Of a stretch of DNA of 64,000 nucleotides, positions 30,541-45,300 are shown in pieces (positions within the stretch are counted from its first letter, which is position 1; each line of letters begins with the position of its first letter). The notes under the pieces were generated by a model. The model was not told the origin of the DNA. It worked only from the letters and a program-made list of their open reading frames with translations, and did not search any database. Made by a program: the position numbers and the translations under genes. The stretch is taken from NCBI GenBank assembly GCA_012797975.1, contig JAAZOD010000020.1, forward strand, positions 102,165 to 166,164. The letters run 5' to 3'. The stretch is from Pelolinea sp. GTDB lineage: Bacteria > Chloroflexota > Anaerolineae > Anaerolineales > Anaerolineaceae.

Positions 30541-30545
30541 GCGAT

Positions 30546-30959
30546 ATGGCTGAGAAAGTCCCCGTTCCTGTTTTATTAATCAGTCATGATGGATTGGCTG
30601 CTTCTTTGAAGCGGGCCAGCGTTATGATCATGGGAGATCAAGAAAATATCGGTGTGATCAGCCTTGAAGAAGGTGATGGTCTTTCCAATTTCATCACGAA
30701 AGTACAGCAGGTGATCAGTGAATTAGAAGGTACAGAAAAAGGCATTATTTTTCTGGTTGATATCCCTTTTGGAACACCTTGGAATGCATCAGTTGCCGTG
30801 AAACGAGAAATAGACCATATTGTTGCTGGAATTAGTCTTCCATTTTTTCTGGAAGTATTAAATTATCGCAATCAATATGATGAGATTGAAAAAATACTTG
30901 CAGATTCACTGGCCATAAAAGACCAGTGTTTCCGCTATCTGGGATCATTGGGAAAATAA
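30546..30959 (+). CDS. PTS system mannose-family IIA component
   Basis: Phosphocarrier accepting phosphate from HPr. The fold motif VPVLLISHDGLAASLKRA contains the phospho-acceptor His; ISLEEGDG and IIFLVDIPFGTPWNAS match EIIA-Man. 137 residues from the ATG at 30546, which has GGAGTGA eight bases upstream; a GTG nine bases earlier overlaps the dehydrogenase stop (GTGA) and is the alternative. The IIA being separated from IIB by three genes is unusual but the set is complete. Confidence 0.88.
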   Translation: MAEKVPVPVLLISHDGLAASLKRASVMIMGDQENIGVISLEEGDGLSNFITKVQQVISELEGTEKGIIFLVDIPFGTPWNASVAVKREIDHIVAGISLPFFLEVLNYRNQYDEIEKILADSLAIKDQCFRYLGSLGK

Positions 30960-30970
30960 CGGAGGAAAAA

Positions 30971-31741: not shown

Positions 31742-31760
31742 ACTCAAAGAAAGGAATGAA

Positions 31761-31791
31761 AGAGCTGCTGAAAAACAAGCAGCTCTTTTTT
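31761..31791 (+). terminator. Terminator or attenuator between aldolase and aldehyde oxidoreductase genes
   Basis: Nine-base stem AGAGCTGCT / AGCAGCTCT with an A-rich loop and six T residues. It ends 26 bases before the next start codon, so it may reduce rather than abolish read-through into the last two genes. Confidence 0.75.
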
Positions 31792-31817
31792 AAAAAATTA
31801 AAGAGTAAGAGGGTTTC

Positions 31818-33704
31818 ATGCCATTTGGTTATACCGGAAAGATCCTTGAAGTGAATTTGACCACAAGAAAGTGGGTGATCATTCAACCTGAGGAGACCCT
31901 TTATCAAAGGTTGGGAGGGGGAAGCGCTTTAGGGGTGTATTGGGTATTAAAGGATACGCCAGCCCAAGTGGATGCGCTTGATCCGCAAAACACACTGGTA
32001 TTTTCTGTGAGTGTTGTGACTGGAGCACCTATTTCTGGTTTAAGCAGGATGAACGTTGCGGCAAAATCGCCATTGACAGGTGCCATCGGTGATTCACAAA
32101 GCGGTGGTTTTTTCCCCGTGGAATTGAAATTTGCCGGTTATGATGCAATTATTGTACGGGGGCGTGCGCAAGCTCCTGTTTATCTATGGATAAAAAATGA
32201 GCAAGTTGAGATTCGAACGGCGGGTCATTTATGGGGAAAAATGACAGCGGAGGTTGAAACTTTAATCCGCGAAGAATTGGAGGATCCAAAAATTCAAATT
32301 GCTCAATGTGGTATTGCCGGAGAACATGGAGTTCGTTTTGCATCTATCATGACAAATGCCAACCGCGCTAATGGTCGCACAGGCATGGGTGCGGTAATGG
32401 CCAGCAAAAACCTTAAGGCAATCGCTGTACGAGGGACCACCAGACCGGTTCTGGCCGACCCGGAAAAATTACGGAAATTGGCACATGCTGGTGTGCAGAA
32501 CTTAAAAAGATCAGGATCTTACGGTTTGAGTTTGGCAGGTACTGCCGGGGCGGTGAATTGGCAAAATCAAGTTGGCGGGTTGCCAACCAGAAATTACAGC
32601 AGTGGCGTCTTTGAAGAATATCAAAATCTGGATGGAGAAACCATCAATAAAGAAATCCTTGTAAAACGCGATACCTGCTATGGTTGCGTGGTGCGCTGTA
32701 AGCCGGTGGTTCATATTGATTCTGTACGGTATCCGGTCGACGCAATTTATGGTGGGCCGGAATATGAAACACTGGCAACATTTGGAAGCTATTGTGGAAT
32801 TGGCAATTTACATGCCGTTGCTTACATGAACCAATTGTGCAATATGTACGGCATGGATACGATCACCTGTGGGGCGACCATCGCTTGGGCTATGGAATGC
32901 TTTGAAAAAGGAAAAATCAACGCTGCACAGCTAGATGGATTGGAATTGAAATTTGGCAATTATGAGGCTGCCATCGCGATGGTCAAAAAGATCGCGTTTT
33001 GCGATGGGGCTGGCAAGGTCCTCGCAGAAGGTTCTGCCCGGGCATCGGAAATTTTCAAAAATGATACACAGGACCTGCTGATCACTGTGAAGGGGCAGGA
33101 ATTGCCAGCGCACATGCCTCAAAACAAAGCCAGTTTGGGTTTGATCTATGCGGTTAATCCCTTTGGTGCCGATCATCAATCCAGCGAGCATGACGGAGCA
33201 TATACACAACCAACTGAAAGAATGGACGCGCTTCTGTTGAATGACCCACAACCAGAAAATGTCTTGAATGAAGAGAAGGTTCGCTATGCGTCCATTACCC
33301 AATGTTTTTATGCTGCCATGGACTCTCTGTGCGCTTGTCAGTTTGTGTATGGGGCTGGCTGGCAGTTATATGGTCCGCAAGACCTGGTGGAAATCGTCAA
33401 CGCAGTTACGGGGTGGAAAATGACGATTCGTGATCTGCTTGATATTGGGATGCGGCGCATCTATCTTATGCGCATATTTAATTATCGTGAAGGCTTTACC
33501 CGGATCGATGATAAACTCCCACGAAAACTTTTCCATCCTTTGATTGGTGGCGCGACCGATGGAGTAAAATTAAAGACTAGCGATTTTGAAAATGCTTTGG
33601 ATGCATATTATGAACAGATGGGTTTGCAGAAAGAATCAGGGAAACCATTAGTGGAGATGTTGAAAACACTCAACCTTGAGATAATGTGTGCAGGATTAGA
33701 ATAG
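31818..33704 (+). CDS. Aldehyde:ferredoxin oxidoreductase family (tungsten-type AOR)
   Basis: Tungstopterin enzyme that oxidises aldehydes to acids and reduces ferredoxin. The N terminus GYTGKILEVNLTTRKW and RLGGGSALGVYWVLKDT are AOR_N hallmarks; AKSPLTGAIGDSQSGGFFPVELK and GRTGMGAVMASKNLKAI are pterin contacts. The [4Fe-4S] ligands Cys287, Cys290 and Cys294 (CYGCVVRC) plus a fourth in DSLCACQF (about 505) are present. 628 residues, normal. No signal peptide: cytoplasmic. Within this operon it would oxidise the aldehyde released by the aldolase. Confidence 0.92.
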   Translation: MPFGYTGKILEVNLTTRKWVIIQPEETLYQRLGGGSALGVYWVLKDTPAQVDALDPQNTLVFSVSVVTGAPISGLSRMNVAAKSPLTGAIGDSQSGGFFPVELKFAGYDAIIVRGRAQAPVYLWIKNEQVEIRTAGHLWGKMTAEVETLIREELEDPKIQIAQCGIAGEHGVRFASIMTNANRANGRTGMGAVMASKNLKAIAVRGTTRPVLADPEKLRKLAHAGVQNLKRSGSYGLSLAGTAGAVNWQNQVGGLPTRNYSSGVFEEYQNLDGETINKEILVKRDTCYGCVVRCKPVVHIDSVRYPVDAIYGGPEYETLATFGSYCGIGNLHAVAYMNQLCNMYGMDTITCGATIAWAMECFEKGKINAAQLDGLELKFGNYEAAIAMVKKIAFCDGAGKVLAEGSARASEIFKNDTQDLLITVKGQELPAHMPQNKASLGLIYAVNPFGADHQSSEHDGAYTQPTERMDALLLNDPQPENVLNEEKVRYASITQCFYAAMDSLCACQFVYGAGWQLYGPQDLVEIVNAVTGWKMTIRDLLDIGMRRIYLMRIFNYREGFTRIDDKLPRKLFHPLIGGATDGVKLKTSDFENALDAYYEQMGLQKESGKPLVEMLKTLNLEIMCAGLE

Positions 33705-33729
33705 GGATAGCCAACATTGGAGAACAAAG

Positions 33730-34686
33730 ATGCCCACACGCGAAGAAATCAATCGACTGGTAACGATTGCCAGGGAATATTATGTAAACAAGAAAACTCA
33801 GGCAGAAATCGCTGAAGAGTTTAATTTGTCGCGTCCTACGATCTCCAAACTGCTGCAAGAAGCGGAGGATGAGAATATTGTTCAGATCAGCATCATCGAT
33901 CCGTTGTATCGCGACTCAGAACTGGCGGTCCGTTTGCAAGATGCGCTGCAATTGCATAATGTCATTGTGGTGCACGGCAGCCGAAAGAACCAAGGCATAT
34001 CCCAAAAAAACATTGCGATCAATACTGCCTGGTATTTTTGCAAAGTGATCGATGATACGGTGCAAAAAATTGGCATCGGGTGGGGAAGGACAATGTATCA
34101 GGTATCCCTTGCAATGGAAACCGCCGTGCGCGATGATCTTCAATTCATCCCGCTTTTAGGTGGAGTGGGTCAGATCAACCCGAGTTTTCAGGTCCATCAA
34201 ATCACACAGCGCGTTGCCGACACTTGTGGAGGAACCTGGCTGCAGTTGCATGTTCCAGGGATCATAGAGAACAAGGAGATCCGAAAAAACCTTCTCAACT
34301 CCCGGGATGTGCAAAATGTGATCTCCAATTGGGAAAATCTGGATCTGGCTCTGGTCGGTATTGGCGAGGCCCCGCCGTTCAAACGTAATATTATCTTTGA
34401 AAGCTATGTGGATGATGAAGAAAAGACCCAGTTGCTGGAGAAGAAAGCGGTGGGTGATATTTGCATGCGCTTCTTTGACATCAACGGAAAGATCATTGAT
34501 TATTTGAAGCAAGAGATCATCAGCATACCATTGCATGTTCTGAAGAACACCCCGCGGGTGATCGCAGCAGCAGGGGGGCCACGCAAAGCGCGTTCCATTA
34601 TTGGCGCCAGCCGGGGCGGATTCATCACCGATCTGATTATTGATGAAGATACTGGAAATGAAATCTTGCAAGTATTGAATAAATAG
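33730..34686 (+). CDS. SorC-family sugar-binding transcription regulator
   Basis: 318-residue regulator. The N-terminal helix-turn-helix TQAEIAEEFNLSRPTISKLLQEAEDENIVQI is followed by a sugar-phosphate-binding domain with KIGIGWGRTMYQV, PLLGGVGQ, LALVGIGEAPP and AAAGGPRKARSIIGA, the usual SorC blocks. It closes the PTS operon, 25 bases after the oxidoreductase gene, and most likely controls it through the palindrome at 27252-27272 in response to the imported sugar phosphate. Confidence 0.92.
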   Translation: MPTREEINRLVTIAREYYVNKKTQAEIAEEFNLSRPTISKLLQEAEDENIVQISIIDPLYRDSELAVRLQDALQLHNVIVVHGSRKNQGISQKNIAINTAWYFCKVIDDTVQKIGIGWGRTMYQVSLAMETAVRDDLQFIPLLGGVGQINPSFQVHQITQRVADTCGGTWLQLHVPGIIENKEIRKNLLNSRDVQNVISNWENLDLALVGIGEAPPFKRNIIFESYVDDEEKTQLLEKKAVGDICMRFFDINGKIIDYLKQEIISIPLHVLKNTPRVIAAAGGPRKARSIIGASRGGFITDLIIDEDTGNEILQVLNK

Positions 34687-34702: not shown

Positions 34703-35314
34703 TTATCCCACTTTTCCAACAAAGTCAGCTTCAGTAAATTTTGTACCAACAAAGTTATCAAAGGTCAAATAGACTATTCGCATATCCTTATTTATTTTCA
34801 GGATGTTGAATAAATCAAGATAGCTTAAGAGAATACGCTTCTCCCAGTTAAATTTTAAATCGCTGGCAACGGTTTTAATTGCGTCTTCTGTTACGCCCTC
34901 AATTTCGACAAAAAGACCAAAAGGAAGTTCATCCACAACTATTTCACATCCCTTATAGCCATAGGTAGTTCTGAATTTTTCATAAATCATGAAAACCGTA
35001 AAACCGAGGGCTTCAAGGATCTTTTGGGTAGATTTGAAATCGGCAACCGTTATTTCCAATTCCTGACGGTCAGCAACCCCTTGTGATACATCGGCCCGGT
35101 CTTTGAAGGTCAGGCGGGTTTGATCATCTTGACGCAAACGCAGCACTTGATGCTTGGAACGCAATTTTTGATCGGGCGTGTCAAAACGCAGGTTATATTC
35201 GTGGACGCGTTCTTTTGTCACTACCGCTCCAATGGTCAACAGGCGCGAAGATATCTCCTTCAGATCGGCAATAAAAAATTTCACTTCTCGTTCGTGGTCG
35301 TCAACGGTATGCAT
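34703..35314 (-). CDS. CYTH-domain protein (class IV adenylate cyclase / triphosphatase-like)
   Basis: 203-residue protein with the CYTH tunnel fold. EREVKF near the N terminus is the ExExK signature; KHQVLRLRQDD, TRLTFKDR, RQELEITVAD, and EIVVDELPFGLFVEIEG supply the alternating charged residues that line the phosphate-binding tunnel. Family members hydrolyse inorganic or thiamine triphosphate or make cAMP; sequence alone does not decide. Convergent with the SorC gene (16 bases between stops) and divergent from the LacI gene. Confidence 0.8.
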   Translation of the reverse strand: MHTVDDHEREVKFFIADLKEISSRLLTIGAVVTKERVHEYNLRFDTPDQKLRSKHQVLRLRQDDQTRLTFKDRADVSQGVADRQELEITVADFKSTQKILEALGFTVFMIYEKFRTTYGYKGCEIVVDELPFGLFVEIEGVTEDAIKTVASDLKFNWEKRILLSYLDLFNILKINKDMRIVYLTFDNFVGTKFTEADFVGKVG

Positions 35315-35364: not shown

Positions 35365-35440
35365 TTGAATTTCATGGATTGATGCGCTATAATTTAAGCG
35401 CTTAAGCATTATTTTTTTAATCTGTTGCTTAAGCGCTTAA
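35365..35440 (+). promoter_or_regulatory. LacI-family promoter with two perfect operators
   Basis: TTGAAT (35365-35370), 17 bases, TATAAT (35388-35393). The 12-base perfect palindrome TTAAGCGCTTAA occurs twice: 35394-35405, directly after the -10, and 35429-35440, five bases before the start codon. The centres are 35 bases apart. Such placing predicts strong autorepression of the regulator gene. Confidence 0.85.
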
Positions 35441-35445
35441 ATGCC

Positions 35446-36444
35446 ATGACCTCGATTTATGATATTGCCAAAGCTGCTGGAACATCGATCGCGACCGTTT
35501 CTTATGTGATCAATAAAAGTGGGCGGGTAAGCCCTGAAACTGCAGCACGTGTTGAAAAAGCCATTCATGACCTGCAGTATGAACCGAAAAGTTTTGCCAG
35601 AGCGCTCGCCAGCGGGCAAACATTTACTATTTCCATCGTTTCTCCATTAACAGTCTATGAAAATCAAATATCCTTCTCGAACCTGCTAAACGGCGTGGGG
35701 GCGGTTCTTGAAAAAAGCGATTATCGATTGTTCATCCATCCCACATTGAGTCGAGCGGACTCATGGATGGAATTGGAAGCGGCGGCGCGCGGTCACCAGA
35801 TGGATGGCGTGATTCTCCTGCATGTGCAACTGCAGGAGAAACGTATCGCTGTTCTGAAAAAAGAATCCATGCCTTTTGTCCTGATCGGCCGCACGAAAGA
35901 CAATACCGGTCTGGATTATGTGGATGCAGATATCAGCGGTGCTGTTCGTCTGGCGGTCGAACACTTGATCGGACGAGATCATCGAAAGTTATGCATGGTG
36001 GGGGAAAAAGGAAATGCAGGAATTTCCATCCGTCTGATCGAGCAGTTCAAAGCTATGATCGCAGAAAAAGACCTTCCCTTTCAACCATCCTGGTGTTCGA
36101 ACATGGCTGAATCATCCGATGAGATGATCCATGACCTTACGGAAATTCTCTCGGCCAGCAATCACCCTTCTGCTATTTTTGCGGTTTCCGATCTGGCTGT
36201 GTTGAATACCTTAAAAGTCGCCCGGTTTTTACATTTACGCGTACCGGAAGACGTCGCCGTCATTGGGTACGCGGATAGTTCGATCTATAAACATCTTGAC
36301 CCACCGGTCAGCGCCGTGTTCAATGGAGTGGAAAAACTGGGCAGTTTGGCGGCTCAAATACTATTAAACAAACTAACGGACCCTGAAAGACCAATCGAGC
36401 AGGTCCTTGTTCCCCCCGAACTTGTCCAACGACATTCGGTATAG
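35446..36444 (+). CDS. LacI-family transcription regulator of the methyltransferase/sugar operon
   Basis: 332 residues. N-terminal helix-turn-helix SIYDIAKAAGTSIATVSYVINKSGRVS and hinge ASGQ, then a periplasmic-binding-protein-like ligand domain (AVIGYADSSIYKHLDPPVSAVFN at the end). The ATG at 35446 is chosen because the longer frame starts inside the second operator. No clear ribosome binding site is seen since the operator fills the leader. It stands 74 bases ahead of a sugar ABC transporter and is its likely controller. Confidence 0.93.
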   Translation: MTSIYDIAKAAGTSIATVSYVINKSGRVSPETAARVEKAIHDLQYEPKSFARALASGQTFTISIVSPLTVYENQISFSNLLNGVGAVLEKSDYRLFIHPTLSRADSWMELEAAARGHQMDGVILLHVQLQEKRIAVLKKESMPFVLIGRTKDNTGLDYVDADISGAVRLAVEHLIGRDHRKLCMVGEKGNAGISIRLIEQFKAMIAEKDLPFQPSWCSNMAESSDEMIHDLTEILSASNHPSAIFAVSDLAVLNTLKVARFLHLRVPEDVAVIGYADSSIYKHLDPPVSAVFNGVEKLGSLAAQILLNKLTDPERPIEQVLVPPELVQRHSV

Positions 36445-36518
36445 AAGAAAAGGAGGTGGAAACGATCATATTCTTTTGTCTTCTGTTCGAAAAATAAACA
36501 ATAATCTTGGAGGATTGT

Positions 36519-37790
36519 ATGTTTACAAAATCACAATGGCTGCGTCTGGCTATCATTTCAGTCCTGATCATGGGTCTGGTCGCAGGATGCACCAACAAAG
36601 AAGAAGTCAAAACAACAGAAGAAGCACAGGTTGAGCAAAAAGAACCGGCCACCCTGAATGTTTGGATTTTGGATCGTGTGGGGACGGATGCCATGGCAGC
36701 CGTTAGCGATGTCATTCAAGCATGGGCTGCAGAGACGGGAAATACTGTCAACATCACCGAGGGAAACCAGTTTGAAATGCTCAACAATATTCCTGTTGCC
36801 ATCCCTGCAGGTGAAGGACCGGATGTGTTCATGACCGTTAATAATTACGTTGGCGGTCACTATTTGGGCGGACTGATTGTCCCCATTCAGGATTCTTTTA
36901 CCGATGCTGATTCCTATATTCCCGGTGCGCTCGATGCGTTTACCGTGGATGGCCAATTGTTGGGTGTTCCGGTGGCGGCGGATGTCAATGCCCTGGTATA
37001 CAACAAAGCCAAAGTAGCAGAAGCTCCAGCAACCATGCAGGAATTGATCAGTGTTTCCAAAGAACTCACCAAGGGTGATGAGTATGGATTGCTTTATCAA
37101 ATCGACAGCTTCTGGTATAGCTATCCATTCTTCTCCGCCCATGGCGGATATATCTTCAAGTGGACTGGCAGCGGTTGGGACACCTCAGATCTTGGCCTCA
37201 ACACTTCTGAAGGCATTGCCGGACTTCAATATATTCGTGACATGGTAACGGTGGAAAATTTGATGCCAGCCGATACAACCTGGGAAGTGATGAATGCCTA
37301 TTTCACTGAAGGTAAATCAGCCATGATCATCACTAGCCCGACCATGATCCCCTCATTCAAGGAAGCGGGTATTGAGGTTGGTGTTGCGCCCATTCCCACC
37401 ATTGAAGGAGTTGGTACTCCCAAGCCATTTGCAACCTATACCGGTTTTTCTGTCAGCGCATATTCCAAATATCAAGAAGAAGCGATCGACCTTGTTCAAT
37501 ATATTGGCGCGAACAGCGGAAAACCCTTGTATGAGGCGAACTCTGGCAACATCCCGGTCTATTCCAGCGTGCTGAACGACTCAGCGCTTTCATCGGATGT
37601 CGAATTGGCTGCCTGGATGAGCCAGTTGGCGAACAGTGACCCCTTACCCAATATCGATGCCATGAACTATGTTTGGACACCCGTTACAACCGCATTTCAG
37701 ACCGTTGTGCATGGTGAAGCGAATGCCGCTACAGCGTTGGCAGAAGCGCAAGAATTGATCCTTCAATCCCTTCAGGGAATCACACAATAA
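36519..37790 (+). CDS. Sugar ABC transporter substrate-binding lipoprotein (family 1)
   Basis: 423-residue extracellular receptor. Lipoprotein signal with lipobox LVAGC, then a Glu-rich tether and the family 1 fold: GEGPDVFMTVNNYVGGHYLGGLIVPIQD, VDGQLLGVPVAADVNALVYNKAKV and NAYFTEGKSAMIITSP are typical of maltose/oligosaccharide receptors. TTGGAGG lies upstream of the ATG at 36519; an earlier TTG is rejected. An extra GGAGGTG lies 60 bases before the start. A strong hairpin follows the stop. Confidence 0.92.
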   Translation: MFTKSQWLRLAIISVLIMGLVAGCTNKEEVKTTEEAQVEQKEPATLNVWILDRVGTDAMAAVSDVIQAWAAETGNTVNITEGNQFEMLNNIPVAIPAGEGPDVFMTVNNYVGGHYLGGLIVPIQDSFTDADSYIPGALDAFTVDGQLLGVPVAADVNALVYNKAKVAEAPATMQELISVSKELTKGDEYGLLYQIDSFWYSYPFFSAHGGYIFKWTGSGWDTSDLGLNTSEGIAGLQYIRDMVTVENLMPADTTWEVMNAYFTEGKSAMIITSPTMIPSFKEAGIEVGVAPIPTIEGVGTPKPFATYTGFSVSAYSKYQEEAIDLVQYIGANSGKPLYEANSGNIPVYSSVLNDSALSSDVELAAWMSQLANSDPLPNIDAMNYVWTPVTTAFQTVVHGEANAATALAEAQELILQSLQGITQ

Positions 37791-37799
37791 TTTTTAAGG

Positions 37800-37833
37800 A
37801 AAGTAGAGTTGGGATTTTTCCCAACTCTACTTT
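37800..37833 (+). other. Intercistronic hairpin after the binding-protein gene
   Basis: Perfect 15-base stem AAAGTAGAGTTGGGA / TCCCAACTCTACTTT with a TTTT loop, between the binding protein and first permease. Only three T residues end the stem, so it probably protects the upstream message and lowers read-through. Confidence 0.75.
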
Positions 37834-37847
37834 GATTGCGAGCGTTC

Positions 37848-38786
37848 ATGGAAATGCCAACAAGGATTCAAAAACCCAGAAAACCGATCTATCCCTATTT
37901 TTACCTGTTGCCCGGACTTACGGCGATTCTCTTTTCCATCATCATTCCGGGTGCGATGACCATTTACTATGCATTCACCAATTATTCTTTGCGCCATCTT
38001 CAAGACTGGGGATGGATCGGATGGGAAAACTTTGAAAAGATATTTGTGGGAAGTAATCGGGGGGAATTCCTGGGAGTCTTTTCGTGGAACATGCAATGGG
38101 CGTTAATCTCCACCATTGGGTCTGCGCTGGTCGGCTTGATTTTAGCCATGCTGCTCAACAATAAAAGGGTGGTTGAAAGAAACTTTTACCGGGTGCTGTT
38201 AATATTGCCCTGGGCGCTACCTTCAACGATCACTATTTTGACTTGGAAAGGTCTTTTCAACTCTTCTTTTGGACCGATCAACCGCATGCTGGGAAGTATC
38301 GGGATCGCAGCAATACCGTGGTTATCCAATTCAACCTGGGCGAGGGCAACCTGTTTACTGGTCAACATTTGGATCGGATATCCATTCATGATGTCTGCTT
38401 TCCTGGGTGGATTGCAGAGCATCCCCGAGGAACTTTATGATGCCTGCCAGGTGGATGGAGCAAATGGATGGCAAGCTTTCAGACATATTACGTTACCCAT
38501 GTTGCGGTCGATCGTTCTGCCGCTGCTGGTTTCTGGCTTTGCTATGAACTTTGGCAATTTTGGTGTCATTTATCTGCTAACCGAAGGCGGTCCTTTTAAA
38601 AGCCCGTCGGTGTTGGCAGGAGCAACCGACCTTTTATCGACCTATATGTACAAGGTGGCATTTGGAGCAACCAATTTTGACTATGGGTTGGCTTCTGCCA
38701 ATGGATTGCTGATCTTCCTGATCGTGGGCAGTTTGACGTTGATCAATCTTTCTATGACCGGCGCATTTCAAGAGGTGAAAGAATGA
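37848..38786 (+). CDS. Sugar ABC transporter permease, MalF/UgpA type
   Basis: 312-residue membrane protein with six hydrophobic segments, beginning PYFYLLPGLTAILFSIIIPG. The cytoplasmic coupling loop reads EELYDACQVDGANGWQAFRHITLPMLR, the EAA motif of family 1 permeases. The ATG at 37848 was taken; a TTG 12 bases earlier lies immediately beside the hairpin stem. The stop overlaps the next permease in ATGA. Confidence 0.92.
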   Translation: MEMPTRIQKPRKPIYPYFYLLPGLTAILFSIIIPGAMTIYYAFTNYSLRHLQDWGWIGWENFEKIFVGSNRGEFLGVFSWNMQWALISTIGSALVGLILAMLLNNKRVVERNFYRVLLILPWALPSTITILTWKGLFNSSFGPINRMLGSIGIAAIPWLSNSTWARATCLLVNIWIGYPFMMSAFLGGLQSIPEELYDACQVDGANGWQAFRHITLPMLRSIVLPLLVSGFAMNFGNFGVIYLLTEGGPFKSPSVLAGATDLLSTYMYKVAFGATNFDYGLASANGLLIFLIVGSLTLINLSMTGAFQEVKE

Positions 38787-39640
38787 GCCACTCCCCGTCA
38801 GTCCGTCTAAAAAAGAAAACCCGCATTTTCCTTTCCATCAATCTGACACGTCTGCTCTTGATCATTACCTGTATGGTGGTGCTTTTTCCGATCATATGGA
38901 TGGCGACCGCATCCATTTCAAAAGGTTCTTCACTATTTTCTTCAACCATCATTCCCAAGAACATTACGCTAAAGAACTATATCAATCTGTTTGAAAAGAC
39001 GAAATTCATAAAATGGATACGCAATAGTGCGATCGTCACTTTGTGCGGCAGTCTGCTGGCTTTGCTGGAGACGACCACCATGGCATACGCTTTTTCACGG
39101 TTCAGGTTCAAAGGCAAAAAGAACGGATTGATGATCTTGATCTTGCTGCAAATGCTGCCCGCCACGGTGACGATCGTGGCGTTGTATAAACTGGCAGTGT
39201 TCATCCAATTGCAAAACACATTCTTGGGATTGATCTTGATCTATGCCGGAACCACTATTCCTTTCAACGCCTGGTTGATGCGCGGATATTTCGATTCCAT
39301 CCCGTTCGAAATTGAAGAATCGGCATACCTGGATGGAGCAAATCACTGGCAAGCTTTCACCAAGATCGCTTTTCCGCTGTGTTTGCCGATGATCGTGGTC
39401 GTCTTTCTTTTCAATATGATCAGTTTTTACAATGATTATTATCTTGCCAGCATTATCTTGAGCGGGAATGATAGGTATACCGTGGCGCTGGGGATGCGTT
39501 TCTTTACACAACCCTATGCGGAGAATTGGCCCATGTTCGCCGCCGCTTCCATTCTGGCCTGCCTGCCCATTGTCGTTATCTTTTACTCGCTTCAGCGATA
39601 TCTGGTGCAAGGTTTGACCAAGGGCGCACTCAAAGGATAA
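38783..39640 (+). CDS. Sugar ABC transporter permease, MalG/UgpE type
   Basis: 285 residues, six hydrophobic segments. Segment 1 LLLIITCMVVLFPIIWMATAS and coupling loop EIEESAYLDGANHWQAFTKIAFPLCLP are typical for the MalG side of the pair; the end is YSLQRYLVQGLTKGALKG, diagnostic. The ATG overlaps the upstream stop. As usual for these systems, the ATPase is not encoded nearby and is presumably a shared MsmK-type protein. Confidence 0.93.
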   Translation: MSHSPSVRLKKKTRIFLSINLTRLLLIITCMVVLFPIIWMATASISKGSSLFSSTIIPKNITLKNYINLFEKTKFIKWIRNSAIVTLCGSLLALLETTTMAYAFSRFRFKGKKNGLMILILLQMLPATVTIVALYKLAVFIQLQNTFLGLILIYAGTTIPFNAWLMRGYFDSIPFEIEESAYLDGANHWQAFTKIAFPLCLPMIVVVFLFNMISFYNDYYLASIILSGNDRYTVALGMRFFTQPYAENWPMFAAASILACLPIVVIFYSLQRYLVQGLTKGALKG

Positions 39641-39642
39641 GT

Positions 39643-40749
39643 ATGCAGAACAGTCATTTGTTTACCGGACTGGAAAAACCTTGTCCGGATGTAACACGAT
39701 TCATCAACCACCTCTTGGGGAAAGAGCAGCTTTCCACACCTCCTTTGGTGGAATTTTTAGTGGATGACAGCATCATGCGCAGGGTCAACACAGAGGTGCT
39801 TGGGCGAAGCTGGGTGGCACCGGGTATGGATCGGGAATCGCAGAGCGCTTATCTGGATAATGTGATCGCATTTTGGAGAGAACTCGGCTACGATTATGTG
39901 CGTATGGAGATGGCGCTTCCTTTCCCCGCCAGAGCAAACAGTACGCAGAATACAGCGGCTGATAACCCGGGGATGCGTGCATGGGTGAATGAAAGCGAAG
40001 GTGCCATTACGAACTGGCAGGATTTTGAAGCATATCCATTTCCGGATGTCTCGAAATTTGATTTTTTTGCTTTTGAATATTTGAACCGCCATGTACCAGA
40101 AGGGATGGGATTGATCCTATCCCATGGTGGGGGCATCTTTGAGCGAACTTCCTGGATATTTTCTATGGAAGGGCTTTGTTATTCTTTAGCGGATGATCCT
40201 GCTTTGGTGAAAGCGGTCGCTGAGCGGGTGGGAAACTTGCAATCGCAGTTCTATCGCCAGATCCTTGATCTTGACAGGGTCGCAGCGATTTTTCCGGGCG
40301 ATGATATGGGATTCAAGACTGCCACGCTAATTTCGCCACGGGACTTGCGTCGATATTTCTTACCCTGGCACAAGAGGTATGCCGAACTGGCTCATGAAAA
40401 AGGGGTCCCTTATTTCCTTCACAGTTGTGGAAATATCCTGAAGATTATGGATGATCTGATCGAGGATGTCAAAATCGATGGGAAACATTCCTATGAGGAT
40501 GCCATTATTCCCGTACAGCAGTTTCAGCAGATATACAAAGGCAAAATTGCCATTCTGGGTGGCATGGACATGCACTTTCTTTCCACCGCCTCCGAGGGGC
40601 AGGTGAAAGCACGTACGAAAAATCTTATTGAACTTTGCGGGCAGACTGGTCGCTATGCGGTCGGATCGGGAAATTCCATTGCCGATTACATACCGATGGA
40701 AAATTACCTGGCGATGGTGCGGGAAGTAAATCTTTCGAAGAATGGATAA
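39643..40749 (+). CDS. Uroporphyrinogen-decarboxylase-family methyltransferase, zinc-site type (MtaA/MtbA-like)
   Basis: 368-residue TIM-barrel protein. It has the zinc-thiolate triad seen in methylcobamide methyltransferases: His260-x-Cys262 (FLHSCGN) and Cys332 (IELCGQTG). In MtaA/MtbA these ligands activate a thiol that accepts the methyl group from the corrinoid. ILSHGGGIFERTSW and IFPGDDMGFKT line the barrel. True UroD for heme synthesis lacks this triad and would not sit in a sugar operon with a corrinoid protein. AAGGA precedes the ATG at 39643. Here it is proposed to carry methyl from the corrinoid protein to tetrahydrofolate or another acceptor. Confidence 0.8.
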   Translation: MQNSHLFTGLEKPCPDVTRFINHLLGKEQLSTPPLVEFLVDDSIMRRVNTEVLGRSWVAPGMDRESQSAYLDNVIAFWRELGYDYVRMEMALPFPARANSTQNTAADNPGMRAWVNESEGAITNWQDFEAYPFPDVSKFDFFAFEYLNRHVPEGMGLILSHGGGIFERTSWIFSMEGLCYSLADDPALVKAVAERVGNLQSQFYRQILDLDRVAAIFPGDDMGFKTATLISPRDLRRYFLPWHKRYAELAHEKGVPYFLHSCGNILKIMDDLIEDVKIDGKHSYEDAIIPVQQFQQIYKGKIAILGGMDMHFLSTASEGQVKARTKNLIELCGQTGRYAVGSGNSIADYIPMENYLAMVREVNLSKNG

Positions 40750-40762
40750 AGGAAAAGGAACC

Positions 40763-41830
40763 ATGATCTTTCGCGATATTCAGTATTACAAACCTGATCT
40801 TCACCATGTCATCCAACGCTACCGAAACCTGTATGAGCACCCTGAGAAGAAACAGATGCTTGTTTATGCTATGCTGCCTTTTGAAAACAAGATTCCGGTA
40901 CCTGCTTTGAACTCATTGAACCTGCAAAAAGATACCGCAGCTTATCTGGATATCTGCTTGAAAAATTATGAACATTTTCTTGCGATAAGCCGTACGATTG
41001 AAGATGATCTCATCCCAACCTTCGGGATCAATTTCGGAACAGGAGAATACAGTGCTTTTGTAGCAGGGGAGGTGGTCTTCACGCAAGATACGTCATGGGC
41101 AACTTCCGTGATTCGCGAATGGGGTGATCTGAAAAAGCTAAAAATTGACGAAGAGAACCGCTGGGTTGTCTTTATGGAAGAGACCTTGCGCTATGTGTTG
41201 CAATTCACTCAGGAAGGTCCAATTCCAGTAGTGCGCGGTTTCTATTCTCCGCTTGATCTTGCTCATGCTTTGCGCGGGGAGATGATTTTCACCGATCTGT
41301 ATGATGCACCGAAAGAAGTGGAAGCGTTGTTGGATTTCTGTGCCGATGCCATCATCTGGTTGGCGAAAAGAATCCATGGAATGATCGGGACCTATTGGGG
41401 TGGCAGTGTGGCCGGAGGATGGCTGAAACCGGGTACGATCTGCATGTCGGAAGATATCGCTTGTTTGATCTCTCCCAAAACGTATGCAAGGCAAATTCGC
41501 CCTTACACACAAAAAGTGATCAATGCCTTTGACAATGGTCAGATCCATACTCATTCTCTGGGGCTGCGCACGTTGCCTGAGATCACAAAACTGGACCATC
41601 TGCTGGGTGTACAGATCGCGGAAGATCCGAACACGCCGCGCACGATGAGCAATCTGGAAAAAGTAATGGAAACTGCCAATGATGTTCCCTTGACGATCAC
41701 CTGTACTTTCGAGGAAATGAAGGAGAAAATCGATGTGGTTGCTGGAAGATACAACATTGTTTTTGGTTCCTCCGCGAACAATGTTGAAGACTGTGAAGCG
41801 ATTGTGCGTTGGGTACGGGAGAGAGGATAG
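40763..41830 (+). CDS. Second uroporphyrinogen-decarboxylase-family protein, without the zinc triad
   Basis: 355 residues with the same overall fold but diverged. Where the first protein has HSCGN, this has HTHSLG (about residue 265), with no Cys ligand pair, while other barrel features remain (VVRGFYSPLDLAHALRG, WGGSVAGGW, PKTYARQIRPYTQKVINAF). Lack of the thiol-activating zinc site suits the substrate-side enzyme (methyltransferase I) that would move a methyl group from the ether substrate to the corrinoid. The ATG at 40763 has GGAAAAGGAA just upstream; a start 21 bases earlier overlaps the previous stop. Function is inferred from context. Confidence 0.7.
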   Translation: MIFRDIQYYKPDLHHVIQRYRNLYEHPEKKQMLVYAMLPFENKIPVPALNSLNLQKDTAAYLDICLKNYEHFLAISRTIEDDLIPTFGINFGTGEYSAFVAGEVVFTQDTSWATSVIREWGDLKKLKIDEENRWVVFMEETLRYVLQFTQEGPIPVVRGFYSPLDLAHALRGEMIFTDLYDAPKEVEALLDFCADAIIWLAKRIHGMIGTYWGGSVAGGWLKPGTICMSEDIACLISPKTYARQIRPYTQKVINAFDNGQIHTHSLGLRTLPEITKLDHLLGVQIAEDPNTPRTMSNLEKVMETANDVPLTITCTFEEMKEKIDVVAGRYNIVFGSSANNVEDCEAIVRWVRERG

Positions 41831-41832
41831 GC

Positions 41833-43605
41833 ATGCTTGATTTTATTTTTGGTGACATGGTTTCAGAGGAAGAGCGCATTGAAAAGTACCGCAAGGTGGT
41901 GCGCAATGTATCCCACCTTTCCCGCCGCCGCCCTCTTCAAACCCGTCCGGGAGAGGAAGTATGTCTTGCTCTCTCCATTGGTCCTGCCGTTGTGACACAA
42001 GAAGCGTTTGTATATTACACCACCGATGGGTTGGATCCCATCGGATCCAAAGGAAAAGCGACCCAGGGTTCTGCGCTTGCAATGCAAAAAAATATCGTGG
42101 AATGGAACATGCCTGAATGGGGCTATGTGCAGGTTTACACTACGACCATCCCTGCGCAGCGATCGGGAACTGTTGTGCGTTACCGTTTGAGCTCGCTCAC
42201 CCCTGCCGGAGAAGAGATCTTTGCGGATGATGGAAAATATTATGCGTTCAGCGTGGATGAGTATCAAACCCCGCAATGGGCGAAAGAGGCCATTCTGTAC
42301 CATATCATGGTTGACCGCTTCTCTCCAGGTTCTGGAAAGTCCTGGAATTCCACCCAGGATGTTGAAGATATTTACGGCGGCACACTACGCGGGATCATTG
42401 AGCATTTGGATCACATCCAGGAATTGGGAGCGAACACGCTGTATCTCAGTCCACTCTTTCCCTGTAATTCCCATCACGGCTATGATTCCACCGATTATTT
42501 TGAGATCGAACCCCGTTTTGGATCAAAAGAGGATTTCAAGGAGCTGCTCGATGCGCTTCATCAGCGGGGCATGAAATTTATCATGGATTTTGTTCCCAAC
42601 CACTGGTCCAATTGCCATGCTACTTTTCAAGATGCCATCACCAATCCGAACAGCCCTTATCGCGATTGGTACGTTTTTCGTAATTATCCCGACGATTATG
42701 AGTGTTTCTTTAAAGTGAAAGAAATGCCAAAGATCAATCTTCGCAATGCGGATGCACGTCGTCATATTCTAAATGCGGCCTGCTACTGGCTGAAATTTGG
42801 TGTGGATGGTTTTCGTATTGATTATGCCATTGGACCCTCGCCTGATTTTTGGGCTGATTTTCGCTCCGCTGCAAAGAGAACGAAAACGGATTGTTGGATC
42901 TTCGGAGAGGTTGTCGATCCGCCCGACTCACAAAAAGCATTGGTGGGGTTGCTGGATGGTTGTCTTGATTTTCATCTTCTGGAATTCATTCGCAAATGTT
43001 TAGGTTCCAGAGAATGGGATTTTGAGAAGTTTTCCGCTTTTCTTGAAAAACATTTCTCTTTCTTCCCGGATGATTTCTTGCTGCCATCCATGCTGGATAA
43101 CCACGATATGGATCGTTTTTCATGGATTGCGGGAAAAGACATGCGGTTGCTGAAGCTGGCTGCTCTGACCCAGTGCTTTCTACCGAATCCGCCTGTGTTG
43201 TATTACGGAACAGAAGTTGGTCTTTCGCAGAACACTGGAATTCGCAGTGAATATGGTGGGTTTGGACATTTGGGTGAAGCGCGGCTGCCCATGATCTGGG
43301 ATGAGGACCAGGATCGAGATCTGTATCAATTTTTCAAAACATTGTACCAATTAAGGAAAGATCTTGCCTTTCATAACCGGCGAGAAATTTCCTTTGAAAA
43401 AGTGACTCCAACTTCCTTGCTCCTCTCGTTCAAAAACGGTTCTCCCATCCGGCTCGTTCTCAATATTGGTGAGAAAGAAGAACAGTTTGAAATCGAAAAT
43501 CGAACGGCTCCAATTGCTTTCTGCACGGCGTATTGCCAAATGAGCAAAGACCATGATAAGTATCGATTGACCCTGCCAGCTTTTTCGGGTGCGATTCTGT
43601 ATTAG
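41833..43605 (+). CDS. GH13 family alpha-glucan hydrolase (cyclomaltodextrinase/neopullulanase-like), cytoplasmic
   Basis: 590 residues. An N-terminal beta-sandwich of about 130 residues (CBM34/Ig-like) precedes the catalytic barrel starting AILYHIMVDRFSPG. The GH13 conserved regions are visible: DFVPNH, DGFRIDYA (nucleophile Asp), WIFGEV (acid Glu) and LDNHDMDRF (Asp stabiliser). A C-terminal beta domain closes the protein. No signal peptide, so it acts on imported oligosaccharides. It follows the methyltransferases by 2 bases. Substrates are probably alpha-linked glucosides, perhaps modified; this is inference from location. Confidence 0.85.
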   Translation: MLDFIFGDMVSEEERIEKYRKVVRNVSHLSRRRPLQTRPGEEVCLALSIGPAVVTQEAFVYYTTDGLDPIGSKGKATQGSALAMQKNIVEWNMPEWGYVQVYTTTIPAQRSGTVVRYRLSSLTPAGEEIFADDGKYYAFSVDEYQTPQWAKEAILYHIMVDRFSPGSGKSWNSTQDVEDIYGGTLRGIIEHLDHIQELGANTLYLSPLFPCNSHHGYDSTDYFEIEPRFGSKEDFKELLDALHQRGMKFIMDFVPNHWSNCHATFQDAITNPNSPYRDWYVFRNYPDDYECFFKVKEMPKINLRNADARRHILNAACYWLKFGVDGFRIDYAIGPSPDFWADFRSAAKRTKTDCWIFGEVVDPPDSQKALVGLLDGCLDFHLLEFIRKCLGSREWDFEKFSAFLEKHFSFFPDDFLLPSMLDNHDMDRFSWIAGKDMRLLKLAALTQCFLPNPPVLYYGTEVGLSQNTGIRSEYGGFGHLGEARLPMIWDEDQDRDLYQFFKTLYQLRKDLAFHNRREISFEKVTPTSLLLSFKNGSPIRLVLNIGEKEEQFEIENRTAPIAFCTAYCQMSKDHDKYRLTLPAFSGAILY

Positions 43606-43614
43606 GAAATATCT

Positions 43615-44655
43615 ATGACAAAAATACTTCAACAAACGACGAACCCACAAATCAAAGGGAGTAGGGTCACCTGGCTTTATCGGGGGAAACAAAGCCCGCA
43701 CCTGATTGGCGATTTCAATTATTGGAATCCTGAAAAAGCACTGCTGTTCGCAAGAACGCAAGATGGGTCGTGGAAAGCCCATTGGGAATTGCCAGAGGAC
43801 GCCTATCTGGAATATGCTTTTTGGATTAATGGGAAAAGAAAACTGGACCCCCTGAATAAATTGAAAGTACAGAATGGCCTGGGTGAATGGAATAATTATT
43901 TTTACATGCCCCGGTTTGTGGAGACCCCCTACCTGCAAGAATGCTCCGAGGAACCTTTTTTTCGAACGGAATCGCATATCTTGCATGATCCATTGCGGTT
44001 GACTAATGGAAAACGATGTGTCCATTTCTACATCCCTGCCGGTCAAGGGCCATTCCCGCTGCTGGTCATTTTTGACGGACAAGAGTACCTTGAAAATGGA
44101 AAAGTGATCCAGATTATTGAGGCACTCATCGGCCAAGGGAAGATTCAACCCATTGCGGTGGCATTGGTAGATAATATTTATCAAAATCGTTTTGTTGAGT
44201 ATGCCTGCAATGACGGAACGGTATCTTTTATTACAAGAAATGTGATTTCCGCCGCCAGGTCGATCATGCCGTTGTTGGACACAGATGAACAAAAAGGCGC
44301 GTTTGGAATTATGGGGGCATCCATGGGAGGATTGATGGCCCTTTACAGTGCTTTGAGGGAGCCGAGTGTTTTTGGAAAAGTCATTTGCCAGGCGGGAGCT
44401 TTCAAAATGTACGGGGACGACTTTTCAATCTATGAATTTGTAGATGGTGTGATGACCAAACCGTTGAAGATTTGGATGAACGTGGGTTGTTTTGATTTTT
44501 TGTGTGAGGAGAATTTACGCATGAAAGACCTTTTGCTGAAAAAGGGATATTCAGCAGACTTTGTCATGAATAACGGTGGGCATAACTATACAACCTGGCG
44601 TAATTCTCTTCACCTGGGGTTGATGGAGATGTTTCCACCGAAAAAAGAGCATTAA
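43615..44655 (+). CDS. Esterase D/enterochelin-esterase-like hydrolase with N-terminal CBM48-like domain
   Basis: 346 residues. Residues about 15-95 look like an E-set/CBM48 domain (VTWLYRGKQSPHLIGDFNYWNPE, DGSWKAHWELPEDAYLEYAFWING), which binds glucan in related enzymes. The alpha/beta-hydrolase domain has the nucleophile elbow GASMGG, an acid near GCFDF and the histidine in GGHNYTTWR. No signal peptide. It would remove an ester group (acetyl, methyl or feruloyl) from an imported sugar; the precise ester is unknown. 9 bases after the GH13 gene. Confidence 0.8.
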   Translation: MTKILQQTTNPQIKGSRVTWLYRGKQSPHLIGDFNYWNPEKALLFARTQDGSWKAHWELPEDAYLEYAFWINGKRKLDPLNKLKVQNGLGEWNNYFYMPRFVETPYLQECSEEPFFRTESHILHDPLRLTNGKRCVHFYIPAGQGPFPLLVIFDGQEYLENGKVIQIIEALIGQGKIQPIAVALVDNIYQNRFVEYACNDGTVSFITRNVISAARSIMPLLDTDEQKGAFGIMGASMGGLMALYSALREPSVFGKVICQAGAFKMYGDDFSIYEFVDGVMTKPLKIWMNVGCFDFLCEENLRMKDLLLKKGYSADFVMNNGGHNYTTWRNSLHLGLMEMFPPKKEH

Positions 44656-44667
44656 AAAGGATTCAAC

Positions 44668-45300
44668 ATGTCAGAAAATATTCTATTCAACGCGGTAGTA
44701 AATGGAGATCGTGAGCGGGTGATCAAGGCGATCCAGGAAGCCATTGAGAACGGGGAAAAGGCCGACATTATTTTGCAAGAAGGAATTGTAAAAGGAATGG
44801 CGGAGGTAGGTCGACTTTTTGAAGAAGGGGAATACTTTGTGCCTGAAATGTTGATCGCCGCGCGAGCTGTAAAAGATGGTTTGCAGGTGCTGAAACCGTA
44901 TTTGCAATTGGCCGATATTCAACCTCGTGGAAAGATCTTGATCGGAACCGTGAAAGGTGATCTGCATGATATTGGCAAGAATCTGGTCTCCATTATGCTG
45001 GAAGGAGCGGGATATCAGATCATTGACCTGGGGGTGGATGTGGATGCCGCTCTGTTCTTGGAAAAAACCAAAGAAGAAAAGCCGGATGTCCTGGCACTTT
45101 CTGCACTGCTGACCACCACTATGACGAACATGACCAATGTGGTGAAAACGATCCGTAATGAAAAACAAACCAGAAATGTGAAGATCATCATCGGAGGCGC
45201 GCCGGTGACCCAAAATTTTGCGGATGAGATCGGAGCGGATGGCTATTCGATGGATGCCAGCCAGGCGGTTCGATTGGTAAACTCTTTGATGCAGCGCTGA
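44668..45300 (+). CDS. Corrinoid (B12)-binding methyl-carrier protein, MtaC/MtbC-like
   Basis: 210 residues: a helical cap domain (1-85) with EGIVKGMAEVGRLFEEGEYFVPEMLIAA, then a Rossmann-type B12 domain with Asp98-Leu-His100-Asp-Ile-Gly103 (GDLHDIGKNL), in which the histidine is the lower axial cobalt ligand. LDLGVDV-like IIDLGVDVDAALF and LSALLTTTM and GGAPVTQNFADEIGADGY complete the motif set. Such proteins shuttle a methyl group between two methyltransferases. It is the last gene of the sugar/methyltransferase operon. No reductive activase for Co(II) is in the window. Confidence 0.92.
   Translation: MSENILFNAVVNGDRERVIKAIQEAIENGEKADIILQEGIVKGMAEVGRLFEEGEYFVPEMLIAARAVKDGLQVLKPYLQLADIQPRGKILIGTVKGDLHDIGKNLVSIMLEGAGYQIIDLGVDVDAALFLEKTKEEKPDVLALSALLTTTMTNMTNVVKTIRNEKQTRNVKIIIGGAPVTQNFADEIGADGYSMDASQAVRLVNSLMQR

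What the first reader, a model, noticed from the sequence alone, without database searches (positions are those of the whole stretch)
35365..45300. Sugar ABC operon carrying a complete corrinoid methyl-transfer set: possible B12-dependent demethylation of methylated sugars
One co-oriented run holds LacI, a family 1 sugar transporter, two URO-D-family methyltransferase-like proteins, a cytoplasmic GH13 hydrolase, an esterase with a CBM48-like domain and an MtaC-like corrinoid protein with DxHxxG. Three-part methyltransferase I / corrinoid protein / methyltransferase II systems are known for methanol, methylamines and aryl methyl ethers. Finding one built into a sugar-import operon suggests that an O-methylated oligosaccharide is imported, trimmed, and its methyl ether opened by corrinoid chemistry, with methyl passing to tetrahydrofolate. 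I know of no established corrinoid-dependent sugar O-demethylase.
Basis: partly seen in the sequence, partly recalled or inferred. Interest (0 to 1): 0.85.

Follow-up and report, generated by a model that had tools for sequence, protein, structure and literature searches.

The report
B12-dependent sugar demethylation gene cluster
A gene cluster found in at least three phyla of bacteria joins a sugar importer and a starch-type hydrolase to relatives of vitamin-B12-dependent methyltransferases, and it likely lets them strip methyl groups from methylated glucose chains without oxygen, a reaction for which my paper searches listed no report.

Summary
Nine co-oriented genes (35446-45300) run LacI, MalE-type binding protein, MalF, MalG, URO-D "UroA", URO-D "UroB", GH13, esterase and corrinoid protein, behind one promoter with twin LacI-type operators found nowhere else in the genome. 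The sugar link is conserved: all 37 UroB loci from genome contigs (titled Chloroflexi, Thermotogae, Firmicutes/Mollicutes) have importer and/or GH13 genes beside UroB, and all 15 with 8 kb or more on both sides have binding protein, MalF, MalG and GH13. Many also carry UroA, corrinoid protein, an MtaA-type third URO-D, RACE activase and esterase. By a published metal-ligand rule, UroA (His-Cys-Asn) and UroB (His-x-His) look oxygen-type and the third URO-D (His-Cys-Cys) sulfur-type.

The operon is not "complete": here the activase and the sulfur-type enzyme lie elsewhere. Tetrahydrofolate as acceptor is doubtful: three cluster-bearing draft genomes lack both pterin-binding proteins and MTHFR. 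I propose a corrinoid O-demethylase system for O-methylated, partly acylated alpha-gluco-oligosaccharides, with methyl passing to a thiol. The boldest reading is catabolism of methylglucose lipopolysaccharide, which carries 6-O-methyl, 3-O-methyl and ester groups. No substrate or activity was tested.

The parts
35365..35393 (+). sigma-70-type promoter TTGAAT-17 bp-TATAAT, directly before the first operator
   Evidence: exact string positions; TATAAT next to the operator is also seen in L006 and L008
35394..35405 (.). LacI-type operator 1, TTAAGCGCTTAA
   Evidence: only two places in the whole genome; the same palindrome stands upstream of lacI in 5 of 5 relatives inspected
35429..35440 (.). 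LacI-type operator 2, TTAAGCGCTTAA, just upstream of the lacI ATG
35446..36444 (+). LacI-family regulator (the TTG at 35425 lies upstream of operator 2, so ATG 35446 is preferred)
   Evidence: PF00356, PF13377; start chosen from sequence
36519..37790 (+). lipoprotein MalE-type solute-binding protein
   Evidence: PF01547/PF13416; GanS and MalE models, below cut-offs; maltose-binding proteins in PDB; lipobox LVAGC by eye
37800..37833 (+). perfect inverted repeat (15-bp arms) between the binding-protein and MalF genes
   Evidence: by eye no T-run follows it, so more likely an mRNA-stabilising hairpin than a terminator (inference)
37848..38786 (+). MalF-type permease
   Evidence: PF00528; MalF model 259 bits, below cut-off
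38783..39640 (+). MalG-type permease
   Evidence: PF00528; MalG model 188 bits, below cut-off
39643..40749 (+). UroA: URO-D-family protein with H260, C262 and N344 at the MtaA His-Cys-Cys positions; predicted methyltransferase
40763..41830 (+). UroB: divergent URO-D-fold protein with H-x-H (264, 266 numbering) and no Cys at the metal-ligand positions; marker gene of the conserved cluster; predicted methyltransferase
41833..43605 (+). GH13 hydrolase of cyclomaltodextrinase/neopullulanase type; no signal peptide seen by eye
   Evidence: PF00128; AglB cyclomaltodextrinase model best, below cut-off; best PDB hits an 'alpha-amylase' 8jnx, then cyclomaltodextrinase and neopullulanases; catalytic D, E and D regions by eye
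43615..44655 (+). esterase (enterochelin-esterase/CE1-like alpha/beta hydrolase), GASMG serine
   Evidence: PF00756; Fes model 94.7 bits, below cut-off; PDB Fes and feruloyl esterases; motif
44668..45300 (+). corrinoid protein with GDLHDIG (DxHxxG)
   Evidence: PF02607+PF02310; MtgC/TIGR02370/MtbC models, below cut-offs; motif

Best explanation
This operon encodes a maltose-type ABC importer, a GH13 alpha-glucan hydrolase, an esterase, two URO-D-family proteins (UroA, UroB) and a corrinoid protein beside a LacI-family regulator, and it likely imports O-methylated, partly acylated alpha-gluco-oligosaccharides and removes their methyl ethers by corrinoid-dependent methyl transfer. Shown: the genes, their order, the operator pair unique in the genome, and the conservation of the package in other phyla. 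Inferred: UroA and UroB act as methyltransferase I and would bind the ether oxygen at a metal site that lacks the full thiolate set, so that cob(I)alamin on the 44668-45300 protein attacks the methyl group. The two enzymes probably serve two methyl positions. The esterase would remove acyl groups and GH13 would cut the chain. A RACE protein encoded elsewhere (G000:C13) would keep the cobalt reduced. The methyl group would then go to a thiol through an MtaA-type His-Cys-Cys enzyme (third URO-D; in trans at G000:C18 here, inside the cluster in L009, L040 and others) rather than directly to tetrahydrofolate. Which thiol (homocysteine, sulfide or another) is open.
For: Linkage: UroB found by its own motifs gave 37 loci. 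All 37 have at least one of SBP, MalF, MalG or GH13 on the same strand within 10 kb. Of the 15 with both flanks of 8 kb or more: SBP 15, MalF 15, GH13 15, MalG 13, UroA 12, esterase 10, corrinoid protein 9, third URO-D 9, RACE 8; the two missing MalG genes are there (L008, L026), hidden by my ORF picking. Specificity: 11 UroA relatives outside such clusters have GH13 in 0 of 11 and MalF/MalG in 1 of 11; 6 distant UroB-like places have GH13 in 0 of 6 and MalF/MalG in 2 of 6 (phmmer). UroB divergence tracks MalG (r 0.940, 32 loci), GH13 (0.948, 33), UroA (0.775, 22) and corrinoid protein (0.694, 21); 0 of 999 permutations reach any of these. Metal site: UroA His-Cys-Asn in 31 of 31 rows of A2, UroB His-x-His in 33 of 33 of A1; third URO-D His-Cys-Cys in 12 of 13 rows, the 13th being cut before the last position. 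PMC10418091 (section 9 read) says His-Cys-Cys marks S-methyltransferases, while in O-methyltransferases Cys is replaced. Folds: both models match MtaA, tied with uroporphyrinogen decarboxylases. RACE: 18 of 18 rows, 16 distinct genomes. Third URO-D: 5 of 6 UroB-positive against 17 of 141 UroB-negative family genomes. Regulators near the clusters hit LacI (8 of 37), TrmB (11) or PocR-AraC (11) queries (one TrmB and one PocR checked by Pfam).
Against: No activity or substrate has been shown. A corrinoid gene lies within 10 kb on the same strand in only 9 of the 15 well-flanked loci and UroA in 12 of 15; L081 has two UroB-type genes and no UroA. UroB loses both Cys positions and might bind no metal. 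The UroA family is much larger than this cluster (3083 homologues), and its relatives in the phylum mostly lie outside sugar operons, so UroA need not be sugar-specific. The third URO-D association is partly confounded by kinship; G509 has UroB but no hit, and the G422 hit is a distant one (33% identity). RACE is also in 67 of 141 UroB-negative family genomes. Three of the eight LacI hits near clusters are weak (27-75 bits). Direction of methyl flow cannot be read from sequence. The O/S ligand rule comes from one paper and was not tested here on enzymes of known activity.
Confidence: 0.62

Rival explanations
1. Same O-demethylase, but the methyl group goes to tetrahydrofolate, as in the aryl methyl ether demethylases of acetogens; MetH or an unrecognised enzyme serves as methyltransferase II.
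For: The own genome has MetH-sized and MTHFR-type genes close together on C15 and formyl-THF synthetase. 3 of 18 genomes tested have AcsB/CdhC.
Against: No pterin-binding protein lies in the operon. The own genome has only FolP- and MetH-sized members. G543, G544 and G545 have neither PF00809 nor MTHFR. The third URO-D in many clusters is thiol-type by its residues. Draft genomes may lack genes by chance.
Confidence: 0.2
2. The URO-D proteins demethylate a methoxylated aromatic or other aglycone that arrives attached to glucose; the sugar genes only deliver and cut the glycoside.
For: The corrinoid O-demethylases whose abstracts appeared in the listings act on aromatic ethers. Esterases related to feruloyl esterases sit in the cluster.
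Against: Importer and GH13 are of maltodextrin type, whereas plant phenolic glucosides are mostly beta-linked (recalled). Among the cluster proteins given to Pfam none was an aromatic-degradation enzyme; other neighbours were not annotated.
Confidence: 0.12
3. The methyl flow is reversed: the cluster methylates sugars, making a methylated glucan as a compatible solute or wall component.
For: Direction cannot be read from sequence (no call bears on it).
Against: The package is built around a binding-protein importer and a hydrolase, often with an esterase, the set-up of uptake and breakdown. No glycosyltransferase was recognised in the operon.
Confidence: 0.06
4. UroA and UroB are not methyltransferases here but have taken another role, for example a decarboxylase, lyase or sugar-binding regulator; the corrinoid gene is a neighbour only.
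For: UroB lacks both Cys positions; 6 of 15 well-flanked loci have no corrinoid gene within 10 kb on the same strand; structural matches to uroporphyrinogen decarboxylases tie with those to MtaA.
Against: UroB divergence tracks that of the corrinoid protein; RACE, which serves corrinoid proteins, is in every cluster genome tested and within 10 kb in 17 of 37 loci.
Confidence: 0.15

Closest known systems
MtaABC/MtbABC methanol and methylamine:CoM methyltransferase systems of methanogens (MtaA/MtbA = URO-D fold)
   Same: URO-D-fold methyltransferase plus B12-binding protein with DxHxxG; UroA and UroB models match MtaA 4ay7; an MtaA-type His-Cys-Cys enzyme would be the exit to a thiol
   Different: Here URO-D-fold proteins are also proposed on the substrate side, with Cys ligands lost; sugar import genes are attached; no CoM is implied
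Aryl methyl ether O-demethylases of acetogens and relatives (OdmB/VdmB types, MtoABCD)
   Same: PMC10418091 names OdmB and VdmB as URO-D superfamily O-demethylases; corrinoid protein and RACE-type activator
   Different: Substrates are aromatic and the acceptor is H4folate (PMC3727330, abstract start in listing); here the context is alpha-glucan uptake and no folate methyltransferase is linked. No reference sequences of these enzymes were compared
Type 1 mlp gene clusters (Kountz and Balskus, PMC10418091)
   Same: Several URO-D paralogues with a corrinoid protein and RACE, widespread in anaerobes, no folate methyltransferase; the third URO-D shares their His-Cys-Cys site
   Different: Their Mlps are, some Mlps1 apart, His-Cys-Cys and linked to methyl-sulfur/selenium; UroA and UroB are not His-Cys-Cys. 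The words sugar, carbohydrate and maltose do not occur in the held main text
P450 6-O-methyl-D-galactose demethylase of marine Flavobacteriia (PMC10033563, passages read)
   Same: Removes a methyl ether from a sugar within a polysaccharide-use locus that also has glycoside hydrolases and an esterase
   Different: A monooxygenase that gives formaldehyde; unrelated enzyme family
MalEFG importer plus GH13 cyclomaltodextrinase operons
   Same: Importer and hydrolase type
   Different: No methyltransferases in the usual operons (recalled)

Membership tests
Three-component corrinoid methyltransferase systems | Substrate-side methyltransferase of a known corrinoid-methyltransferase fold | tested here: met
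Three-component corrinoid methyltransferase systems | Corrinoid protein with B12-binding domains and DxHxxG | tested here: met
   PF02607+PF02310, GDLHDIG
Three-component corrinoid methyltransferase systems | Acceptor-side methyltransferase II | tested here: inconclusive
   None recognised in the operon; an MtaA-type URO-D in trans at C18, in-cluster in L009 and L040. Its acceptor is unknown
Three-component corrinoid methyltransferase systems | ATP-dependent reductive activator (RACE) | tested here: met
   One RACE in the genome, in trans; within 10 kb of UroB in 17 of 37 loci
Acetogen-type O-demethylase with H4folate acceptor | Stand-alone pterin-binding methyltransferase II linked or present | tested here: not met
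   Own genome: only FolP-sized (327 aa) and MetH-sized (869 aa) proteins, neither in the operon
Acetogen-type O-demethylase with H4folate acceptor | Sequence relation of UroA/UroB to OdmB/VdmB | not tested
   No reference sequence was at hand
Type 1 mlp gene cluster | Mlps with His-Cys-Cys metal site | tested here: not met
   UroA His-Cys-Asn, UroB His-x-His; only the third URO-D has it
O-type URO-D methyltransferases (ligand rule of PMC10418091) | One or both Cys ligands replaced by carboxylate or a non-coordinating residue | tested here: met
   UroA: second Cys is Asn. UroB: both Cys positions changed, one of them to His, which the rule does not mention
GH13 alpha-glucan hydrolases | Alpha-amylase catalytic domain with conserved catalytic regions | tested here: met
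   PF00128 205 bits; regions seen by eye and, for relatives,
MalEFG carbohydrate ABC importers | Maltose-type binding protein and two permeases | tested here: met
   (NCBIfam matches below cut-offs); no ATPase in the operon, a shared ATPase is assumed
Sugar O-demethylase | Methyl transfer from an O-methyl sugar to the corrinoid protein | not testable with these tools
   needs enzymes

The most novel reading that the evidence does not exclude
The cluster is a catabolic pathway for actinobacterial methylglucose lipopolysaccharide (MGLP) or kindred methylated, acylated alpha-1,4-glucans in anoxic habitats. MGLP has 6-O-methylglucose in the chain, a 3-O-methylglucose end and short-chain acyl esters on an alpha-1,4 backbone (PMC4555173, passages). 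That matches two distinct O-type methyltransferases, one esterase, one alpha-1,4 hydrolase and a maltodextrin importer. It would be the first corrinoid-dependent, oxygen-free sugar O-demethylase, and it would move methyl from oxygen to sulfur.
Probability: 0.22. Interest if true: 0.9.

Novelty: new variant of a known kind. Interest (0 to 1): 0.76.

Why it matters
Sugar methyl ethers hinder ordinary hydrolases and metabolic enzymes. The one sugar O-demethylation route met in the papers I opened uses a P450 monooxygenase. A corrinoid route would explain how anaerobes open methylated glycans, add carbohydrates to the substrates of B12-dependent demethylation, and supply one-carbon units or methyl-sulfur compounds from glycans in anoxic habitats. 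The cluster has a clear genetic signature (UroB) and occurs in a named strain (Longilinea arvoryzae KOME-1, L040), so the idea can be tested.

Tried and rejected
Rejected: 'complete' methyl-transfer set in the operon. Rejected: membership of type 1 MGCs for UroA/UroB (metal ligands differ). Rejected: a chance neighbourhood. Not followed: the upstream ADH/EIIA/DeoC-type aldolase/AOR/SorC-like genes (29.5-34.7 kb), separated by a gene on the other strand (CYTH, 34703-35314) and by the operon's own promoter.

Led nowhere: sequence search of UroB against solved structures, alone (one chance hit, E 0.53) and as a profile (none). Operator-like sites (up to 2 mismatches) in the 20 kb around the in-trans genes: none around RACE; one partial match in L078, 7 kb from the MtaA-type gene. 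None of the listed papers was on a corrinoid-dependent sugar demethylase, as far as title and abstract start show; several listings were capped (for example 20 of 456, 25 of 48, 15 of 40), and the library is open-licence PMC only. Papers opened: PMC10418091 (outline, section 9, one find), PMC4555173 (passages), PMC10033563 (passages); all others were seen as listings with abstract starts only.

Limits. ORF calling in scripts was mechanical (greedy longest ORF), and classes are phmmer hits to this window's or a few cluster proteins, so other families are missed. In one search the SBP of fused SBP-MalF genes was counted by length; a recheck shows that each long MalF also hits the SBP query (58-109 bits), and Pfam finds SBP in 10 of 10 fused proteins of the 15 well-flanked loci and the permease domain in 9 of 10, not in L026. 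The SBP hits of L016 and L027 are weak (46 and 43 bits). A1 used the window plus 32 of the 120 listed homologues (138 found). A2 used the window, 18 of the 120 listed homologues (3083 found) and 12 of the 23 locus UroA rows; L012, whose cluster UroA has Asp at the Cys position (H-D-N), was not in A2. In the wider count, UroA is His-Cys-Asn in 22 of 24 rows and UroB His-x-His in 40 of 41; the exceptions are L012, and L019_7193 and L008_11074, two low-scoring (39 bits) URO-Ds that are probably unrelated. In some searches two pairs of handles are the same genome (G463/G537, G527/G538), so 18 rows are 16 genomes. Several control loci are short contigs (for example L100, 7.8 kb; L114, 3.7 kb). Completeness of genomes reached through loci (G539-G551) is not told. 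The third protein-database search was left unused.
Full report
What is there. The window lies in a 2.57-Mb draft genome (98.49% complete, 4.33% contamination) of the same family as Longilinea arvoryzae: G463, marked same family, has the same UroB and RACE places as the genome of L040. Between 35365 and 45300 a promoter, two LacI-type operators and nine co-oriented genes form one unit: LacI, MalE-type lipoprotein, MalF, MalG, UroA, UroB, GH13, esterase, corrinoid protein. Gaps from MalF to the last gene are -4 to 13 bp. The operator TTAAGCGCTTAA occurs at just two places in the genome, both here, and stands before lacI in all five relatives inspected (L006, L009, L040, L008, L081). The regulator thus looks dedicated to this operon (inference).

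The link to sugar genes is not local. UroB, the more unusual URO-D protein, served as the probe; 138 homologues were detected. A scan of genome contigs with UroB's own conserved peptides gave 37 loci, titled as Chloroflexi/Anaerolineae, Thermotogae/Kosmotogaceae and Firmicutes/Tenericutes/Izemoplasmatales/Acholeplasmataceae/Haloplasma. All 37 have importer and/or GH13 genes on the same strand within 10 kb. Among the 15 with at least 8 kb on both sides the counts are SBP 15, MalF 15, GH13 15, MalG 13 (15), UroA 12, esterase 10, corrinoid 9, third URO-D 9, RACE 8. In most Bacillota- and Thermotogota-type loci the binding protein and MalF are one fused protein of about 770 aa. As a contrast, 11 UroA relatives outside UroB clusters had GH13 in 0 of 11, MalF/MalG in 1 of 11 and a corrinoid gene in 2 of 11; six distant UroB-like places had GH13 in 0 of 6 and MalF/MalG in 2 of 6. 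The four other URO-D genes of this genome have no GH13 hit beside them. Pairwise divergence of UroB tracks that of MalG, GH13, UroA and corrinoid protein, as expected if they travel together; shared ancestry of the hosts alone could give part of this. The cluster is rare and patchy: of 400 genomes drawn from the phylum, 5 match at E<=1e-20, and only the window's own is a clear UroB; 6 of 147 genomes of the family have one.

Chemistry suggested by the residues. PMC10418091 (section 9 read) states that S-methyltransferases of the URO-D superfamily bind zinc with His-Cys-Cys and that in O-methyltransferases one or both Cys are replaced. In the alignments here UroA has His260, Cys262 and Asn344 at those places (31 of 31 rows of A2; 22 of 24 rows of the locus set). 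UroB has His-x-His and no Cys (33 of 33 rows of A1; 40 of 41 of the locus set). The third URO-D of many clusters has His-Cys-Cys (12 of 13 rows; the other is cut short). A second form of third enzyme (L024, L034; in L024 with a thioredoxin-like domain by Pfam) has Phe in place of His. The AlphaFold models of UroA and UroB are confident (pLDDT 91.9 and 94.4). Both match the methylcobalamin:CoM methyltransferase MtaA, tied with uroporphyrinogen decarboxylases, over nearly their whole length. Reading UroA and UroB as oxygen-side and the third enzyme as sulfur-side methyltransferases is inference from these residues.

Fate of the methyl group. RACE is present in every cluster genome tested (18 rows, 16 distinct genomes). 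In the window's genome it lies on contig C13 without other cluster genes beside it. RACE also occurs in 67 of 141 family genomes without UroB, so it is not specific. The MtaA-type enzyme occurs in 5 of 6 UroB-positive and 17 of 141 UroB-negative family genomes (Fisher one-sided p 0.0003, ignoring kinship); G509 is the exception and the G422 hit is distant. For folate: the own genome has one FolP-sized and one MetH-sized pterin-binding protein, MTHFR near the latter, formyl-THF synthetase and no AcsB/CdhC. G543, G544 and G545 have neither PF00809 nor MTHFR. The known folate exit is therefore not seen in at least those three drafts, and a thiol acceptor is the more general reading. MTHFR is missing in 7 of 18 genomes tested, and AcsB/CdhC is present in 3 of 18.

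Substrate. The importer is closest to maltose-type binding-protein systems. The GH13 is closest to cyclomaltodextrinase and neopullulanase types and to an 'alpha-amylase' structure, 8jnx; in L023 the slot is filled by a GH13 with the PF02903 N-domain. Esterases of the PF00756 family recur. An alpha-glucan with methyl ethers and esters fits this set. MGLP is such a polymer: 15-20 alpha-1,4-linked glucose or 6-O-methylglucose units, a 3-O-methylglucose end, and acetate, propionate or isobutyrate esters (PMC4555173, passages). Two oxygen-type enzymes for two methyl positions is an attractive match but untested. Man-made methylated starches or cyclodextrins and other methylated glucans are not excluded.

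Rivals. A folate exit, an aromatic aglycone, reverse methylation and a non-methyltransferase role are set out with their tests. The main weaknesses are that the corrinoid gene is not always nearby, that UroA's wider family is not tied to sugars, and that no enzyme has been assayed.

Verdict. Its sugar-demethylation idea survives the linkage test it proposed and gains a residue-level argument, but 'complete set' does not hold for this genome, and 'methyl passing to tetrahydrofolate' is not supported for the cluster at large. I file it as a new variant of a known kind: a corrinoid methyltransferase system aimed at carbohydrates. No corrinoid sugar O-demethylase was among the papers listed in ten searches, as far as titles and abstract starts show.

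Noticed in passing
own genome C11 = L080:9281-17074; C26 = L079:4044-10586: Two further URO-D genes sit beside ABC importers with Bmp (PnrA-like) binding proteins; the C11 unit also has a corrinoid protein and a GntR regulator with a sugar-binding-type domain. A parallel system for methylated nucleosides or ribosides is conceivable.
   Followed up: partly
window 37800-37833: Perfect 15-bp inverted repeat between the binding-protein and MalF genes, without a T-run after it; the kind of hairpin that may raise binding-protein expression.
   Followed up: partly
window 29524-34686: Co-oriented zinc alcohol dehydrogenase, EIIA-man-type, DeoC/LacD-type aldolase, aldehyde:ferredoxin oxidoreductase family and sugar-binding (SorC-like) regulator genes; a separate sugar-type operon.
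   Followed up: partly
L023:11102-13405, L024:2854-5184 and similar loci: The binding protein is fused in front of the MalF permease in one protein of about 770 aa.
   Followed up: partly
L024:10647-12032, L034:10367-11761: Third URO-D related to MtaA with Phe in place of the metal-ligand His; in L024 Pfam finds a C-terminal thioredoxin-like domain, and the L034 homologue has nearly the same length.
   Followed up: partly
L008:6175-9990, L010:2135-5640, L011:6473-9976: Some Anaerolineae clusters carry two different GH13 genes in a row before UroB.
   Followed up: no
L081:9339-18781: A relative's cluster with two UroB-type genes, no UroA, two further URO-Ds, a GH127-family protein and an esterase-type hit.
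   Followed up: partly
own genome C7 = L077:8665-10530: Another corrinoid protein next to a URO-D protein of 402 aa, without sugar-importer hits beside it.
   Followed up: no
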